Position numbers and translations under genes: made by a program. A model generated the notes under the pieces. The model was given only the letters and a program-made list of their open reading frames with translations, was not told the DNA's origin and did not search any database. Shown in pieces: positions 44,256-55,294 of a stretch of 64,000 nt of DNA; within the stretch, counting starts at the first letter, position 1; every line of letters starts with the position of its first letter. Location: positions 1-64,000 of the forward strand of contig JAHCHD010000008.1 in assembly GCA_026129915.1 (NCBI GenBank), in the 5' to 3' direction. The stretch comes from Bryobacterales bacterium. GTDB taxonomy: Bacteria > Acidobacteriota > Terriglobia > Bryobacterales > Bryobacteraceae.

Positions 44256-45724
<1,469 letters not shown>

Positions 45725-45728
<4 letters not shown>

Positions 45729-49042: not shown

Positions 49043-50269
49043 TCAAAAGGGCCGGTGCGTCTCGTAGACGATCTTGATCGGCACCGCATCCCGCACGGTT
49101 ACACGGAGCACAATCTGAAAGTGATCTGGGATCGGGGCTCCCCCCGTGGAGAGCTTCGACATCAACTCCCGGGCGTAGATATCCTCCGTCAGGTATTTTG
49201 CCCCAGCCCAAATTCCTGTTGTGGTGTGCGACTCGATCACCAGCAACTCCCCATCACTGTGCAATCCGGGCACGAAGCTGATCAGCGCGAAGTCGGTCCT
49301 CTCGCGCTCGTCGTCTTCGAGGACGCGGAACCATCTTTTGGGCTCGCCCTCTCGTGGCCTGCGGTTAATGACTGATTCGCCTTCGACGCTGAACGCCCAT
49401 TCGGCACTCAGGGAGAGGATCTGTCGATTTGATTTAGCGGACCCCAGGAAGATTACGTTGTAGCCGCCAATTGAATCCCAAGTCAGAGCGCTGGAGCGGA
49501 TCAAATCGGCCTGGAAGCCATTTCCACCAAAGAACCGGCCCAGCAGAAACGCCGCGGTTGCCTGCCCAGTTCCTGTGTAACCGTAATTCTGGCGCAATGG
49601 CACCTCATTGAAAATTGTGGCGAGCTTGTCAAGTCGGCTCTGGACTGCATCGGGAGTCGCTAGATCCAAGGCCGGTTCACGCAGGAAGCCTCCCTGATAG
49701 GAGTAGAACTGGTGGGTGCCCAAAGAAATCAGCACCGGGCGGGGGCTGCGCATGAAAGTGTGCCAGACGTCCCTCAGTTCTTGAGACAACCGCTTCGAAT
49801 CAGTATCCATCTTCGAGCTGCGGAAGGTGGAAATTCCAAAGGCCACGAGCATCACCAGTAGCGCAAACGTGGATATCTTCCAGAATTGGGCGGTTGCTGG
49901 CGCCGCAGCCGCCTCGGGCTGTACAGCATTTGCATTGAACACAGGCAGGAATTGCCGGCGAGGCAATTCAATGCGGATGGGGTCTCTGGCACCTTCAGTC
50001 GCATAGTATTCGACGAGCTTCTGCCGAAGCTTGCCAGCTTGCACACGCACGTAGGCGTCGTGTTGCGGATCGTAGCTTTCGGGCCGGCCAAAGGCCTCAA
50101 CACCGATCGTATATTCCTTCAGGGGCGTGTCAGGATCAGAGAGCGCGCGGTTAACCAACCAAGCAAGAAGCAGATGAACTGCCGACTTGGCTCCGAAGGT
50201 CCTGCTCGAGAGGATAGACTCAAGCGCGTGTCGAATCTCAACTTCATCGAAATGTAGCTTTGGTTGCAA
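49043..50269 (-). CDS. Membrane-anchored protein with N-terminal wHTH-like region; putative one-component regulator
   Basis: The start is TTG 50269, the only usable codon after an upstream stop. Residues 1-110 form a conserved-looking cytoplasmic domain (RHALESILSSRTF, LKEYTIGVEAFGRPESYDPQHDAYVRVQAGKLRQKLVEYYATEG, RIELPRRQFLPVF). Its end resembles the recognition-helix and wing pattern of OmpR/CadC-type domains. A single membrane helix (about 129-149) and a roughly 255-residue periplasmic alpha/beta domain (ISLGTHQFYSYQGGF, GYNVIFLGSAKSNRQIL) follow. This layout matches ToxR/CadC-like regulators. It is divergent from an Oar-like receptor gene, its likely target (inference). No DNA-binding residue is proven. 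Confidence 0.6.
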   Translation of the reverse strand: MQPKLHFDEVEIRHALESILSSRTFGAKSAVHLLLAWLVNRALSDPDTPLKEYTIGVEAFGRPESYDPQHDAYVRVQAGKLRQKLVEYYATEGARDPIRIELPRRQFLPVFNANAVQPEAAAAPATAQFWKISTFALLVMLVAFGISTFRSSKMDTDSKRLSQELRDVWHTFMRSPRPVLISLGTHQFYSYQGGFLREPALDLATPDAVQSRLDKLATIFNEVPLRQNYGYTGTGQATAAFLLGRFFGGNGFQADLIRSSALTWDSIGGYNVIFLGSAKSNRQILSLSAEWAFSVEGESVINRRPREGEPKRWFRVLEDDERERTDFALISFVPGLHSDGELLVIESHTTTGIWAGAKYLTEDIYARELMSKLSTGGAPIPDHFQIVLRVTVRDAVPIKIVYETHRPF

Positions 50270-50408
50270 TGCTTTGCCGGTAGTCGAAACTTGTTCGGTC
50301 TTTTGATTGACTTGATTTTACTGTAGATCCTCTCCTCAACGACTTACCGTAGAGCGTAGCTGCTTCACAGCCTCCTCGCCCTTCCCTGTCCGAATTAGGA
50401 GATTGCCA

Positions 50409-53400
50409 ATGCGACTTTTCGTCTTCCTTGTAATGTCCTCGATGGCAGTGCTGGCTCAGACAGCTCAGGTGACCGGTCGCGTGACCGATTCCACCAGCGC
50501 TGTGGTAGTCAACGCGTCGATCGAAGTCACCAACGTGGATACCGGAATTCAGCGGACCACGGTCTCGAACTCGGGGGGCACTTACACGCTGCCCTTGCTC
50601 CCTCCAGGCCAATACACCGTTAGTGCCGGTGCCGATGGTTTTCGCACTGAGGTCCGGCAGGGCATCACTCTCGCCGTGGATCAGACCGCCCGGCTCGATT
50701 TCGTCCTGGTTCTAGGATCAGTCGCCGAATCGATTTCGGTGACGGCGGACGCAGGTCTGGTGGATTCCTCCAGCGCTACGGTGGGCACGGTGATTGAGAA
50801 CCGGCGCGTGTCGGAACTACCTCTCAACGGACGGAATGCGATGGCGCTCGTCATGTTGACACCAGGCGTTAAGTCGAACGCAGGCCCTACAAACAGCGGT
50901 TTTGGTGACAGGGGAACGGCACTCTCCTCCATCAGCATCAATGGTGGACCCAGCGGCATGAACAACCTCATGCTAGACGGGGGAAACAATGTGGATTCCT
51001 ACCAGATGGGAGTGAATGTCAGTCCAGCCGTCGACGCGGTCCAGGAGTTCAAGGTTATGGCAAACACGATGTCCGCGGAGCATGGCTTCACGGCCGGCGG
51101 GGTTGTCAATATGGTCACGAAGTCCGGCACCAACGAACTGCACGGCACCTTATACGAATTTGTTCGAAACGATAAGTTTGATGCGCGACGTACATTCGCG
51201 CAACAAAGAGACCCCTTCCGTTACAACCAGTTTGGAGGTGCAGTTGGAGGACCCGTTGTGCTTCCGCGACTCTACAACGGGAAGGAGCGCACCTTCTTCT
51301 TCTTCAATTACGAAGAGTGGCGTTTCCGCAGGTATGATAACCCCGTCTTCACTGTGCCCATCGAGGAACAGCGCAACGGAGACTTCTCAAGGCTGTTCAC
51401 TGCCTCAGGCGCACAGATCCCGGTGTTCGATCCCTGGTCCACCCGGGCAAATACCGGTGGTTCCGGATTCCTGAGGGACCGCTTCCCAAACAACGTGATT
51501 CCACAAAGCCGCATGGACCCGGTGGCGCAAAACTACCTGGCTTTCTATCCCCTCCCAAACCGGGCGCCGGTGAACCCGTTCACCAACCAGCTAAACTTCG
51601 CGGGCAGCAACGCGGAGCAACGATCCATGCGCCAGTATACCTCCCGAGTGGATCATCGATTGGGCAACAGGAACTCCCTGTTCGGGCGGTATACCTACTA
51701 CCAGCACTACACCGATGGCGGCATTGGCGGGGTTCTGCCCGACCCCGTCGTTCGGCAGCGAATAGATAACTGGGAGAATCGCAATCTAATTCTGTCGGAC
51801 ACGCACACCTTCACGCCCACCCTCCTAAACGAGTTCCGGGCAGGTGTTGCGCGACTCTACTTTCCTTTCAATGTGGCAAGTTTCGGCGACGATTGGCCCC
51901 AGAAACTGGGACTGCCCGCGATCGTGCCTTCCGACACGATTCCAGCAGTCAACAACGGATTGCCCGGCATCGTCACTGGCACTGCCGGCCTGCGTGCCGC
52001 CACTACCTGGCAGATTCAGAACACACTCACCTACATCCGCGCCCAGCATACTCTGAAGAGCGGATTTGAGCTCAGAATCCAGCGGGCGAACAACCTGCAG
52101 CGTAGTGCACCTTCGGGTTCATTTGTATTTCCTGTCGCCCTCTCCGGCAATCCCCAGGCCCCGGCTGGAACCGGCAGCGCTTTCGCGACCTTTCTTACGG
52201 GTGCTGTGGGCAACGCCAGCGTCACCACCCACTTAGGACAGGCCCAGCATGGGCATTCCCTGAGCTTCTTTGTGCAAGACGATTGGCGGCTCGCCCGTCG
52301 CTTCACCCTCAATCTCGGCCTGCGCTACGACTACCAGCCGTGGCCGGTTGAGCGCTACGATCGGGTTTCCAACTTCAACCCGTTTGCGCCTGAACCAGTC
52401 CGTGGATTGCCTGGCCGTCAGGAGTTCGCTGGGCAGGACTACGGCCGGTCGGCCATCGCGAACGTGAAGAACAGCTTCTCGCCCCGCATAGGCTTCGCAT
52501 ATTCGGTAGATGATTCCACCACGTTCGTGATTCGGGGCGGTTACGGCATCTTCTATCCGCTCATCTTCGCCCGGGACTACTTCGGCAACGGCGCAGGGTT
52601 TGCCACTACATCTACGGCCTATCTCCCCCCCGGCGGAAATGCCAATCTCCCCGCTATGCGCTTCAGTGATGGCTTCCCCTCTGCACCCATTCAGCCACAG
52701 GGTGCGGCGCTTGGCCCCAACGCCTTCTTTGGCCAGAATGTCAGCTATACCCAGCCCAATGAGCCCGCGCCGATGACCCAGCAGTGGAATCTTGGAATCC
52801 AGAAACAATTCGGTCTGGGGTGGATGGTCGACGTCACCTATTCAGGCTCCCATGGCACCCACTTCCTTTCCGGTGTCTATGACTACAACCAACTTGACCC
52901 AGTTCATCTTGCTCTGGGGCTCGCGCTGCAGGATCGCGTCCCCAACCCTTATGAAGGTTTTGTTCCCGGCGCGCTCGGCGCAGCAACCATCACCCGCGAG
53001 CAGTCGCTCCGGCCTTACCCGTATTACAACCAGATTGGTGTTACCACCGCGATGAATGGCAACTATAATTCCCATGCCCTCCTGATGACCATGCAGAAAC
53101 GCTTCTCTTCGGGTCTCACGCTGTTGGCATCATTCACAGGCGGAAAGTTGATCAACGATAGTGTCCGCACCATGCTGAATTTCGGAGAGTTTGTGGAACA
53201 GGTGGGCATCGTCGGATACCAGAATGGCAACTTTGACCGGCGGCTTGAGCGGTCTCTCGATCCCACGGATGTTTCGCGACGGCTGGTCTTCAGCGGAGTC
53301 TACGAGCTTCCGTTTGGGAAGGGAAAGGCGTTCGGCGGCAATGGGAAGGTCTTCAATGTACTTGCCGGGGGCTGGCAAGTCAATTCAATTACTACCCTGC

Positions 53401-53819
53401 AGACGGGACTTCCGTTGGTGATACGCGGTGCCAATAATCTCCGCGCCGATCGGCCCAATTCCACTGGCGAAAGCGCCAAATTGTCGAACCCCACCGCTGA
53501 TCGTTGGTTCGACACGAACACTTTTGTCAATCCCCCGAACTTCACATTCGGCAATGTGGGGCGCGTGCTGCCCGATGTCCGAGCCCCAGGCGTGGCCAAC
53601 GTGGATATTTCACTCATCAAACGAACTCCGATTGGTGAACGCGCCCGTCTGGAACTCAGAGGTGAGGCCTTCAATGCGTTCAACAGGGTCAACTTGGGCT
53701 TCCCGAATGTGTCCTTCCAGGCGGGACCGGATGGCCGCAATTTGAGCGCTGCATTCGGCACGATCACATCCTCCCGGGATGCTCGCATTATCCAGTTAGG
53801 ACTGAAGCTCATTTTCTAG
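50409..53819 (+). CDS. TonB-dependent receptor, Oar-like, with N-terminal carboxypeptidase-regulatory domain
   Basis: ATG 50409 follows AGGAG seven bases upstream. The 1136-residue protein has a signal peptide (FVFLVMSSMAVLAQ), a CarboxypepD_reg domain (about 20-100; VTGRVTDSTSAVVVNASIEVTN, GTYTLPLLPPGQYTVSAGADGF), and a plug region (VSELPLNGRNAMALVMLTPG, ISINGGPSGMNNLMLDGGNNVDSYQ). A large beta-barrel follows with repeated aromatic strands and ends in LGLKLIF with the terminal Phe typical of outer-membrane proteins. It would import or export a glycan, peptide or iron complex using TonB energy. It is followed by an alpha/alpha-barrel lipoprotein-like gene and is divergent from the putative regulator. 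Confidence 0.94.
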   Translation: MRLFVFLVMSSMAVLAQTAQVTGRVTDSTSAVVVNASIEVTNVDTGIQRTTVSNSGGTYTLPLLPPGQYTVSAGADGFRTEVRQGITLAVDQTARLDFVLVLGSVAESISVTADAGLVDSSSATVGTVIENRRVSELPLNGRNAMALVMLTPGVKSNAGPTNSGFGDRGTALSSISINGGPSGMNNLMLDGGNNVDSYQMGVNVSPAVDAVQEFKVMANTMSAEHGFTAGGVVNMVTKSGTNELHGTLYEFVRNDKFDARRTFAQQRDPFRYNQFGGAVGGPVVLPRLYNGKERTFFFFNYEEWRFRRYDNPVFTVPIEEQRNGDFSRLFTASGAQIPVFDPWSTRANTGGSGFLRDRFPNNVIPQSRMDPVAQNYLAFYPLPNRAPVNPFTNQLNFAGSNAEQRSMRQYTSRVDHRLGNRNSLFGRYTYYQHYTDGGIGGVLPDPVVRQRIDNWENRNLILSDTHTFTPTLLNEFRAGVARLYFPFNVASFGDDWPQKLGLPAIVPSDTIPAVNNGLPGIVTGTAGLRAATTWQIQNTLTYIRAQHTLKSGFELRIQRANNLQRSAPSGSFVFPVALSGNPQAPAGTGSAFATFLTGAVGNASVTTHLGQAQHGHSLSFFVQDDWRLARRFTLNLGLRYDYQPWPVERYDRVSNFNPFAPEPVRGLPGRQEFAGQDYGRSAIANVKNSFSPRIGFAYSVDDSTTFVIRGGYGIFYPLIFARDYFGNGAGFATTSTAYLPPGGNANLPAMRFSDGFPSAPIQPQGAALGPNAFFGQNVSYTQPNEPAPMTQQWNLGIQKQFGLGWMVDVTYSGSHGTHFLSGVYDYNQLDPVHLALGLALQDRVPNPYEGFVPGALGAATITREQSLRPYPYYNQIGVTTAMNGNYNSHALLMTMQKRFSSGLTLLASFTGGKLINDSVRTMLNFGEFVEQVGIVGYQNGNFDRRLERSLDPTDVSRRLVFSGVYELPFGKGKAFGGNGKVFNVLAGGWQVNSITTLQTGLPLVIRGANNLRADRPNSTGESAKLSNPTADRWFDTNTFVNPPNFTFGNVGRVLPDVRAPGVANVDISLIKRTPIGERARLELRGEAFNAFNRVNLGFPNVSFQAGPDGRNLSAAFGTITSSRDARIIQLGLKLIF

Positions 53820-53836
53820 TGGAAAAGGAATTCCTT

Positions 53837-55294
53837 ATGACACGACGAGAACTCTTCCAATACACCGGATTGGCCGGAGTCGCCGCTAGCATCGGATGCA
53901 GCCGCAAGCAGGAATACCTGCCACTCATTCGAACTCATCTCGAAGGGATAGCCAAGCATGGCCTCGACCGGTACGGCGCCGAGAAGACGCCCATGTGGAT
54001 GGCCTCGCTCGACCTGGAGACAATGGCCTACCCTGAGTCTGAGCCCATTGCCCGCGCGGGAAGAAGGGTGTATCGCGATATCGCCTCACCATTCGGTAGC
54101 AATATCTATTGGGACGTCCCTCAGCTAGCAGTCGCACACGCGGTTTCAGACTCAACAGGAGACCCGCAATACTCTAAAGCGGTAACGAACTATGTCCAGT
54201 CATTTCTGGCCAAAGGGGTTGACGAACACGGAGTCTTTGAGTGGGGAAACCACCGCTACTACGATGCATTCACCGATAAGCCTGCCCACTTCACAGGCGG
54301 GCCGCACGAGATGAGGCCTATCCACCCTTGCTGGGAAGTCTTTTGGAGGATAGACCCTAAGGTTACCGAAACCCAGATCCGGCAGAGTGGCATCCGCCAT
54401 GTGTTTGACCCCGCAACCGGTGGCTTCAATCGACACGATGATGGGATAAAGGGCTACGCCTTCCTGGAAGCCGGCGGCATCCTTTCAGAATCGCTGTCTT
54501 GGCTCTACGCAAAAACCAAAGACGATTCACTCGCGGACATGGCACAGAAGATCGCTGAGTTTAGCTTTGGCTACCGCGGCGCGGACACGGGCCTCGTGGA
54601 GAACAGCCCCACAAGAGACCGTTGGGACAAGTACGTCTGTACAACTGAAGTTGGTCTGTGGGCAGGCTCTTTGCTGCGAGCCGCGGATCTCACAGGCCGT
54701 CAGGAGTTTGAGCGAATGGCCGAAGATGCCATGAAGGCCTACCTTCGGTATGGCTACGACAAGAAGACCCGCAGGTATTTCGGCCAGCTCCAAGTTGCAG
54801 ACGGTAAGCCCGTGCTGAGAGACAATCCAGTGCCCGGCCACGAGGAGTACTTTCCCGGAAATCACGCGGATGTCTGGAACGCAAACTTTCCCTCGCATGA
54901 CTACCCCATGGCCTTTGCCACCACGTGCGTGGAACTTTATCGGCGGACGAAGGCCGAGCCATTCGGCGAGGCAATCGAACGATGGGCTGGCGCGCTGCAG
55001 GAGCAAGAAGTCCCCACTACAGCCAGCAACGGACGTGGCGGCTACGCTGAGCTGTTTGGCCGGTCCATCCAGTTCCTGCTCAACGCGTCGGAGGTCACGG
55101 GTGGGAGAAGCTACATGGAAAGCGCATCGGCCCTCGCGATGGACGCGAAGAAGATCCTCTATGCCAACGGCATGTTCCGTGGACACGCTGGCGAGGATCG
55201 CTACGACGCTGTGGATGGCGTAGGGTTCCTGCTTCTGGCGCTATTCTCCCTGGATACCGGAAAGCGCCCTGACTATCTCGGGTTCGGGTTCTAG
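53837..55294 (+). CDS. Exported alpha/alpha-barrel-like protein, possibly a glycan lyase or epimerase
   Basis: ATG 53837 follows AAGGA at good spacing; a GTG overlapping the receptor stop is less likely. The 485-residue product begins TRRELFQYTGLAGVAASIGCS, giving both a twin-arginine pattern and a Cys at the possible lipid-attachment site. The body is helical with repeated aromatic and acidic motifs (SNIYWDVPQLAVAHAVSD, FEWGNHRYYDAFTDKPAHFTGG, RDRWDKYVCTTEVGLWAGSLLRAADLTG, GHEEYFPGNHADVWNANFP, RGGYAELFGRSIQFLLNAS), like (alpha/alpha)6 barrels of lyases or 2-epimerases. I cannot name the family. Its position just after the receptor suggests it processes the receptor's substrate. Confidence 0.65.
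   Translation: MTRRELFQYTGLAGVAASIGCSRKQEYLPLIRTHLEGIAKHGLDRYGAEKTPMWMASLDLETMAYPESEPIARAGRRVYRDIASPFGSNIYWDVPQLAVAHAVSDSTGDPQYSKAVTNYVQSFLAKGVDEHGVFEWGNHRYYDAFTDKPAHFTGGPHEMRPIHPCWEVFWRIDPKVTETQIRQSGIRHVFDPATGGFNRHDDGIKGYAFLEAGGILSESLSWLYAKTKDDSLADMAQKIAEFSFGYRGADTGLVENSPTRDRWDKYVCTTEVGLWAGSLLRAADLTGRQEFERMAEDAMKAYLRYGYDKKTRRYFGQLQVADGKPVLRDNPVPGHEEYFPGNHADVWNANFPSHDYPMAFATTCVELYRRTKAEPFGEAIERWAGALQEQEVPTTASNGRGGYAELFGRSIQFLLNASEVTGGRSYMESASALAMDAKKILYANGMFRGHAGEDRYDAVDGVGFLLLALFSLDTGKRPDYLGFGF

What the first reader, a model, noticed from the sequence alone, without database searches (positions are those of the whole stretch)
49043..55294. Putative membrane one-component regulator divergent from an Oar-like receptor and an exported barrel protein
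The protein at 49043-50269 has an N-terminal region whose end (RVQAGKLRQKLVEYY...RIELPRRQFLPVF) looks like the recognition helix and wing of OmpR/CadC-type domains, then one membrane helix and a periplasmic domain of about 255 residues. It faces an Oar-type TonB-dependent receptor whose gene is followed 17 bases later by an unassigned exported helical protein. This would be a sensor-regulator/receptor/enzyme unit working without sigma/anti-sigma factors, unlike classical SusR/FecIR control.
Basis: inference. Interest (0 to 1): 0.62.

Follow-up and report, generated by a model that had tools for sequence, protein, structure and literature searches.

The report
Membrane switch beside an outer-membrane receptor
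A soil bacterium carries a single-protein switch that spans its inner membrane, with a DNA-grabbing end inside and a new kind of sensor outside, and that sits next to (and probably turns on) an outer-membrane uptake receptor and a pectin-cutting-type enzyme; many related soil bacteria pair the same kind of switch with such receptors.

Summary
P0001 (49043-50269, -) has no database family. AlphaFold gives a confident winged helix at residues 9-113 (pLDDT 95); its best PDB matches are OmpR/PhoB-type DNA-binding domains. One membrane helix and a roughly 250-residue alpha/beta domain follow; the latter weakly resembles BcsB and GH67 alpha-glucuronidase domains. The receptor is an Oar-like TonB-dependent receptor (PF13620 + PF25183). 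The 'unassigned' third protein is a PL2-type pectate lyase homologue (PF06917) that keeps the metal-binding and catalytic residues.

Homologues across Acidobacteriota sit next to Oar-like receptors far more often than chance: 39 of 70 within 600 bp, 5 of 6 in this genome. Three other genomes repeat switch-receptor-PL2. Promoters in the family share a de novo motif, direct repeats of about CCGGTTA every 11 bp, the geometry of PhoB-type operators; a Bacteroidota homologue has it too. The window's own 139-bp region shows no recognisable copy.

Best reading: a ToxR/CadC-like membrane one-component regulator of an undescribed subfamily that locally controls an Oar-like uptake unit, here probably for pectin-type uronates. 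Ligand, sign of regulation and binding at this locus are untested. New variant of a known kind.

The parts
49043..50269 (-). Membrane-bound one-component regulator P0001 (408 aa, TTG start)
   Evidence: no Pfam/NCBIfam/PDB sequence match; AF2 model pLDDT 89.3
49931..50245 (-). Winged-helix DNA-binding domain, residues 9-113
   Evidence: AF2 of the domain pLDDT 95, pTM 0.87; Foldseek: SaeR, RstA, PhoB DNA-binding domains; 14 of 47 homologous domains touch PF00486 below cutoff, best E 1.2e-5
49997..50053 (-). Predicted recognition helix, residues 73-91 (VRVQAGKLRQKLVEYY region)
   Evidence: V74, R75 and R82 (P0001 numbering) among the invariant columns of the family alignments
49811..49882 (-). 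Single transmembrane helix, residues about 130-153
   Evidence: helix in model; 91 of 100 family members have a 19-residue hydrophobic segment here
49046..49792 (-). Predicted periplasmic alpha/beta sensor domain, residues 160-408
   Evidence: Foldseek nearest: BcsB (E 5.7e-3, prob 0.96), then GH67 alpha-glucuronidases; no PDB sequence relative
50270..50408 (.). 139-bp divergent promoter region; no recognisable copy of the family motif here
50409..53819 (+). Oar-like TonB-dependent receptor (PF13620 N-terminal domain, PF25183 barrel)
   Evidence: PF25183 E 2.6e-225, PF13620 E 5.1e-22
53837..55294 (+). Exported PL2-type pectate lyase homologue with Tat-like signal (RRELFQ...GC); H145, E164, R205, H206 (numbered from GTG 53819) align with the YePL2A metal and catalytic residues H109, E130, R171, H172
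   Evidence: PF06917 E 4.3e-17; PDB 2v8i/6ojk alignment; residue roles from PMC10992409; positions

Best explanation
P0001 is a ToxR/CadC-like membrane one-component transcription regulator of an undescribed subfamily. Its N-terminal winged helix binds DNA in the cytoplasm, a single helix crosses the inner membrane, and a C-terminal alpha/beta domain in the periplasm senses a ligand, most likely a saccharide or uronate brought in by the neighbouring receptor or released by the PL2-type enzyme. Ligand binding would change dimerisation and drive transcription of the divergent receptor-PL2 operon and of the regulator gene. Shown by computation: the genes, the fold class of the DNA-binding domain, the single membrane helix, the repeated linkage to Oar-like receptors, and, in the family, operator-like direct repeats with an 11-bp period in the regulator promoter region. 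Inferred: periplasmic location of the sensor, ligand, activation rather than repression, and binding at this particular locus.
For: Winged helix pLDDT 95 with OmpR/PhoB-family nearest structures; sub-threshold PF00486 matches in 14 of 47 members. Full-length model with one TM helix and an alpha/beta domain. Adjacency: own genome 5 of 6; four contiguous genomes about 13 of 22 (binomial p 4e-11 at a generous 6%); wider set 39 of 70 within 600 bp; of 9 'other' proteins with readable flanks only 2 were near a receptor, one a frameshifted member of the sensor class and one a 127-aa ORF overlapping a receptor, while the long TPR-sized ones had none. Same switch-receptor-PL2 order in L100, L102 and L149. 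Promoter motif: perfect 7-mer direct repeats enriched at period 11 (9 observed, 0.6 expected); de novo motif with one sequence per 50%-identity cluster, score 89 against 52-61 for shuffles, sites at p<0.02 in 31 of 55 receptor-adjacent regulators. In the own genome the exact AACCGGTNNNNAACCGGT occurs once, beside the C8 paralogue's gene.
Against: The window's own 139-bp region has no recognisable motif copy (score 3.4, p 0.60). Foldseek E-values for the DNA-binding domain are weak (0.22) with TM-scores of 0.42-0.48. The N-terminal beta-sheet of OmpR-type domains is replaced by a helix. About 36% of alpha/beta-class members have no receptor within 2.5 kb, so some control other genes. The window is a long, deep branch and does not group specifically with the other PL2-linked regulators.
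Confidence: 0.72

Rival explanations
1. The regulator is genuine but controls something other than the adjacent receptor (for example only itself or distant genes); adjacency reflects joint transfer or loose clustering.
For: About a third of sensor-domain homologues have no receptor within 2.5 kb; the window locus lacks the family motif.
Against: Mostly divergent or directly co-directional placement across many genera, the motif between the two genes, and its concentration in receptor-adjacent members (31 of 55 against 8 of 44).
Confidence: 0.15
2. The receptor is a secretion conduit rather than an importer, as Myxococcus Oar is for protease PopC, and the unit controls export of the PL2-type enzyme.
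For: M. xanthus Oar is needed for PopC secretion (PMC6434023 abstract); the PL2 gene lies 17 bp downstream and carries an export signal.
Against: Most receptor-regulator pairs found here have no PL2 or other constant cargo gene; the PL2 homologue has its own Tat-like signal.
Confidence: 0.1
3. The regulator represses the receptor operon and is relieved by ligand, instead of activating it.
For: The sign of control cannot be read from sequence; motif sites lie roughly 45 nt upstream of the regulator start in several members, compatible with either.
Against: CadC activates its target operon (PMC5430869), and ToxR-like proteins are mostly described as activators (general knowledge).
Confidence: 0.2

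Closest known systems
ToxR/CadC-like membrane one-component regulators
   Same: Cytoplasmic OmpR-type winged helix, one TM helix, C-terminal periplasmic domain (definition in PMC5430869)
   Different: No N-terminal four-stranded sheet (a helix instead); sensor domain unrelated by sequence to any solved structure; operator-like motif is GC-containing 11-bp direct repeats, not the AT-rich CadC site; linked to Oar-like receptors
PhoB/OmpR response regulators
   Same: Winged-helix type (SaeR, RstA, PhoB are top structural matches) and 7-bp direct repeats with 11-bp period in target DNA (pho-box geometry from general knowledge)
   Different: No receiver domain; membrane-tethered; no phosphorelay
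FecIR-type sigma/anti-sigma control and SusR control of receptors
   Same: Local control of a TonB-dependent receptor gene
   Different: No sigma or anti-sigma gene nearby; different protein family
PL2 pectate lyases (YePL2A)
   Same: PF06917 match above cutoff; metal and catalytic residues H, E, R, H conserved
   Different: Only distantly related outside the N-terminal half; activity untested
Myxococcus Oar
   Same: CarboxypepD_reg domain plus large outer-membrane barrel
   Different: One of about 60 such receptors in this genome; specific role unknown

Membership tests
ToxR/CadC-like receptors (definition in PMC5430869) | Cytoplasmic OmpR-type winged-helix DNA-binding domain at the N-terminus | tested here: met
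   AF2 helix-helix-helix-recognition helix-wing, pLDDT 95; top PDB matches OmpR/PhoB family, though E 0.22
ToxR/CadC-like receptors (definition in PMC5430869) | Full OmpR-type topology with N-terminal four-stranded beta-sheet | tested here: not met
   Model has an N-terminal helix (residues 9-20) and no N-terminal strands; so filed as a variant, not a canonical member
ToxR/CadC-like receptors (definition in PMC5430869) | Single transmembrane helix | tested here: met
ToxR/CadC-like receptors (definition in PMC5430869) | C-terminal domain in the periplasm senses a signal | not testable with these tools
   Topology inferred from a single helix; mean flank charge higher on the N side in the family (1.9 against 1.1), but the window's helix is neutral on both sides
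Pfam PF00486 Trans_reg_C | Match at the curated cutoff | tested here: not met
   No match for P0001; 14 of 47 domains match at E up to 0.1, best E 1.2e-5; L013 scores 22.4 bits against the cutoff 26.2
PL2 pectate lyase (PF06917) | Match above Pfam cutoff | tested here: met
   62.4 bits against 26.6; homologues beside related receptors also pass
PL2 pectate lyase (PF06917) | Metal-binding and catalytic residues | tested here: met
   H145, E164, R205, H206; a second catalytic Arg (R272 of YePL2A) not tested
Oar-like TonB-dependent receptor | CarboxypepD_reg domain plus large outer-membrane barrel | tested here: met
   PF13620 and PF25183
FecIR-type sigma/anti-sigma regulation | ECF sigma and FecR-like genes beside the receptor | tested here: not met
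   Neighbours are PSD1/PSCyt, DUF1501, PL2, choloylglycine-hydrolase-type genes

The most novel reading that the evidence does not exclude
A previously undescribed, widespread class of membrane one-component regulators in Acidobacteriota, combining a sheet-less OmpR-type winged helix with a carbohydrate-type (BcsB/GH67N-like) periplasmic sensor, that is dedicated to switching individual Oar-like receptors on when their own cargo reaches the periplasm, through pho-box-like 11-bp repeats: a sigma-free counterpart of FecIR control for a phylum with dozens of receptors per genome.
Probability: 0.5. Interest if true: 0.7.

Novelty: new variant of a known kind. Interest (0 to 1): 0.56.

Why it matters
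Acidobacteriota are among the commonest soil bacteria and carry dozens of Oar-like receptors whose cargo and control are largely unknown. A dedicated local regulator with a predicted sensor and a predicted operator gives a direct experimental handle on what a given receptor takes up. I found no description of the family in the open paper library; subscription papers were not searchable.

Tried and rejected
Sequence-only assignment of P0001 with Pfam, NCBIfam and PDB gave nothing. Profile searches of the PDB gave only marginal hits: SaeR at E 0.59 in the right register, and cytoglobin, flavodoxin or nothing for the full-length or sensor profile. A match of the family motif in the window was sought and not found; the perfect 12-bp-period repeat for the window lies inside the receptor coding sequence and was discarded. 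A specific shared ancestry of the PL2-linked regulators was tested: the three others form a clade (support 0.98) but the window is not its sister. Five further genome matches to the strict operator pattern are chance hits with no regulator nearby. The first tree attempt failed to give a tree file and was redone with unique names. The listing of neighbours of receptor-less members stopped early with a script error and was not repeated.

Full report
Observation. The window is contig C312 of a 5.28-Mb, 85%-complete draft genome with about 60 Oar-like receptors; relatives with named records are Bryobacteraceae and other Acidobacteriota. The divergent gap between TTG 50269 and ATG 50409 is 139 bp, and the third gene starts 17 bp after the receptor stop.

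The regulator. P0001 has no Pfam, NCBIfam or PDB match. An alignment of 28 homologues gave an AlphaFold model with mean pLDDT 89: helices 9-20, 30-44, 52-60 and 73-91, wing strands 98-101 and 110-113, a membrane helix near 130-153, and an alpha/beta domain from about 160 to the end. The domain alone, with 47 sequences, scored pLDDT 95 and pTM 0.87. Its best PDB matches are SaeR, RstA and PhoB DNA-binding domains (probability 0.89 at best, E 0.22, TM-scores about 0.45). Fourteen of 47 members touch PF00486 weakly (best E 1.2e-5). It therefore belongs to the OmpR-type winged helices, but lacks the N-terminal four-stranded sheet that the CadC domain has (PMC5430869).

The sensor. Foldseek places the C-terminal domain nearest to BcsB (E 5.7e-3, probability 0.96), then GH67 alpha-glucuronidases and, lower, GH84 and GH115 proteins. 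The match is weak and partial, so 'carbohydrate-type sensor' is a lead, not a result. In the own genome, seven of eight matches to the sensor profile lie in winged-helix proteins and the eighth is a broken fragment. In a phylum-wide sample it was found mainly within the same class.

Neighbourhood. Nine copies of the winged-helix domain exist in the genome. Of those with the alpha/beta sensor and readable surroundings, five of six touch an Oar-like receptor; a copy with two malectin domains also faces one, and a TPR-type copy does not. In 61 relatives, 22 homologues lie in other genomes and 12 are directly next to a receptor, with several more one gene away. In four contiguous genomes, about 13 of 22 winged-helix proteins touch a receptor, against a generous 6% expectation (p 4e-11). 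Across all loci collected, 39 of 70 sensor-class proteins have a receptor within 600 bp, mostly divergent (24) or downstream in the same direction (13), and 6 more within 2.5 kb. The wider set was seeded by sequence similarity to the query, so these rates apply to its relatives.

The enzyme. The third protein matches Pectate_lyase_2 above cutoff and aligns with YePL2A so that H145, E164, R205 and H206 fall on the metal-binding and catalytic residues named in PMC10992409. Three other genomes have the same order of regulator, receptor and PL2 homologue. The regulators of those three form a clade, but the window's regulator is a long separate branch, so the association is either old or arose twice.

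Operator-like motif. Aligning the divergent regions of orthologues exposed AACCGGT-NNNN-AACCGGT in one group and TTAACCGTTAA in another. Perfect 7-mer direct repeats upstream of receptor-adjacent regulators are enriched at period 11 (9 against 0.6 expected) and only weakly or not at other periods. De novo motif discovery gave tAaCCGGTtactaACCGg (score 152 against 53-61 for shuffles). With one sequence per 50%-identity cluster and the window left out, it gave gCGGT...ttAcCGGtTa (89 against 52-61). Thirty-one of 55 receptor-adjacent members have a site at p<0.02, against 8 of 44 others; some of those sites helped train the model. A Bacteroidota homologue (Flexithrix, L178) carries AACGGTTTTTTAACGGTT upstream of its gene. 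The exact pattern occurs once in the own genome, beside the C8 paralogue. Seven-base direct repeats every 11 bp are the known geometry of PhoB-type sites (general knowledge). The window's own promoter region has no recognisable copy (p 0.60), so binding there is inferred only from the family.

Mechanism and limits. The best-supported mechanism is a ToxR/CadC-like membrane regulator that senses a periplasmic ligand and controls the receptor-PL2 operon and itself. Fold class, membrane helix, linkage and family motif are computed results. Ligand, sign of regulation, periplasmic orientation and binding at this locus are inferences. No description of the family was found in the open literature searched.

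Noticed in passing
L016:7338-8534, L079:1477-2616, L086:694-1839: A subgroup of the regulators has the same winged helix and sensor but no membrane helix, so it should be soluble; two of the three still touch a receptor.
   Followed up: partly
L017:11755-12774, L071:5269-6591, L074:544-1953: In this subgroup the membrane segment is weakly hydrophobic, and in L017 it is preceded by a twin-arginine-like stretch (PTRRGLIGTALSFAAG); the sensor might be exported by Tat (read from sequence).
   Followed up: no
L018:11092-12771: The same winged helix is fused to two malectin (carbohydrate-binding) domains, facing a receptor at the contig end.
   Followed up: partly
L178:5986-7176: Flexithrix dorotheae (Bacteroidota) has a homologue with AACGGTT repeats every 11 bp upstream but no Oar-like receptor nearby; it faces a different exported protein.
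   Followed up: partly
L017:4722-8083, L067:12251-15610, L071:10239-11891, L113:10332-12254, L121:7804-9627: Genes that read like FAD-dependent oxidoreductases with export signals recur next to receptors paired with these regulators, a possible second cargo type.
   Followed up: no
G000:C288:25930-26154: Fragment of the sensor domain with stop codons, apparently the remnant of a lost regulator.
   Followed up: no
L149:5771-7029: Regulator gene beside a receptor and PL2 homologue appears split by a frameshift in this draft genome.
   Followed up: no
window:45725-48910 and 44256-45728: PSCyt1/PSCyt2/laminin-G/PSD1 protein followed by a DUF1501 protein on the minus strand, a Planctomycete-type pair next to the unit.
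   Followed up: no
window:55473-56588: Choloylglycine-hydrolase-type (PF02275) protein with an apparent signal sequence, convergent to the PL2 gene.
   Followed up: no
window:56831-57715: 294-residue protein with no Pfam match.
   Followed up: no
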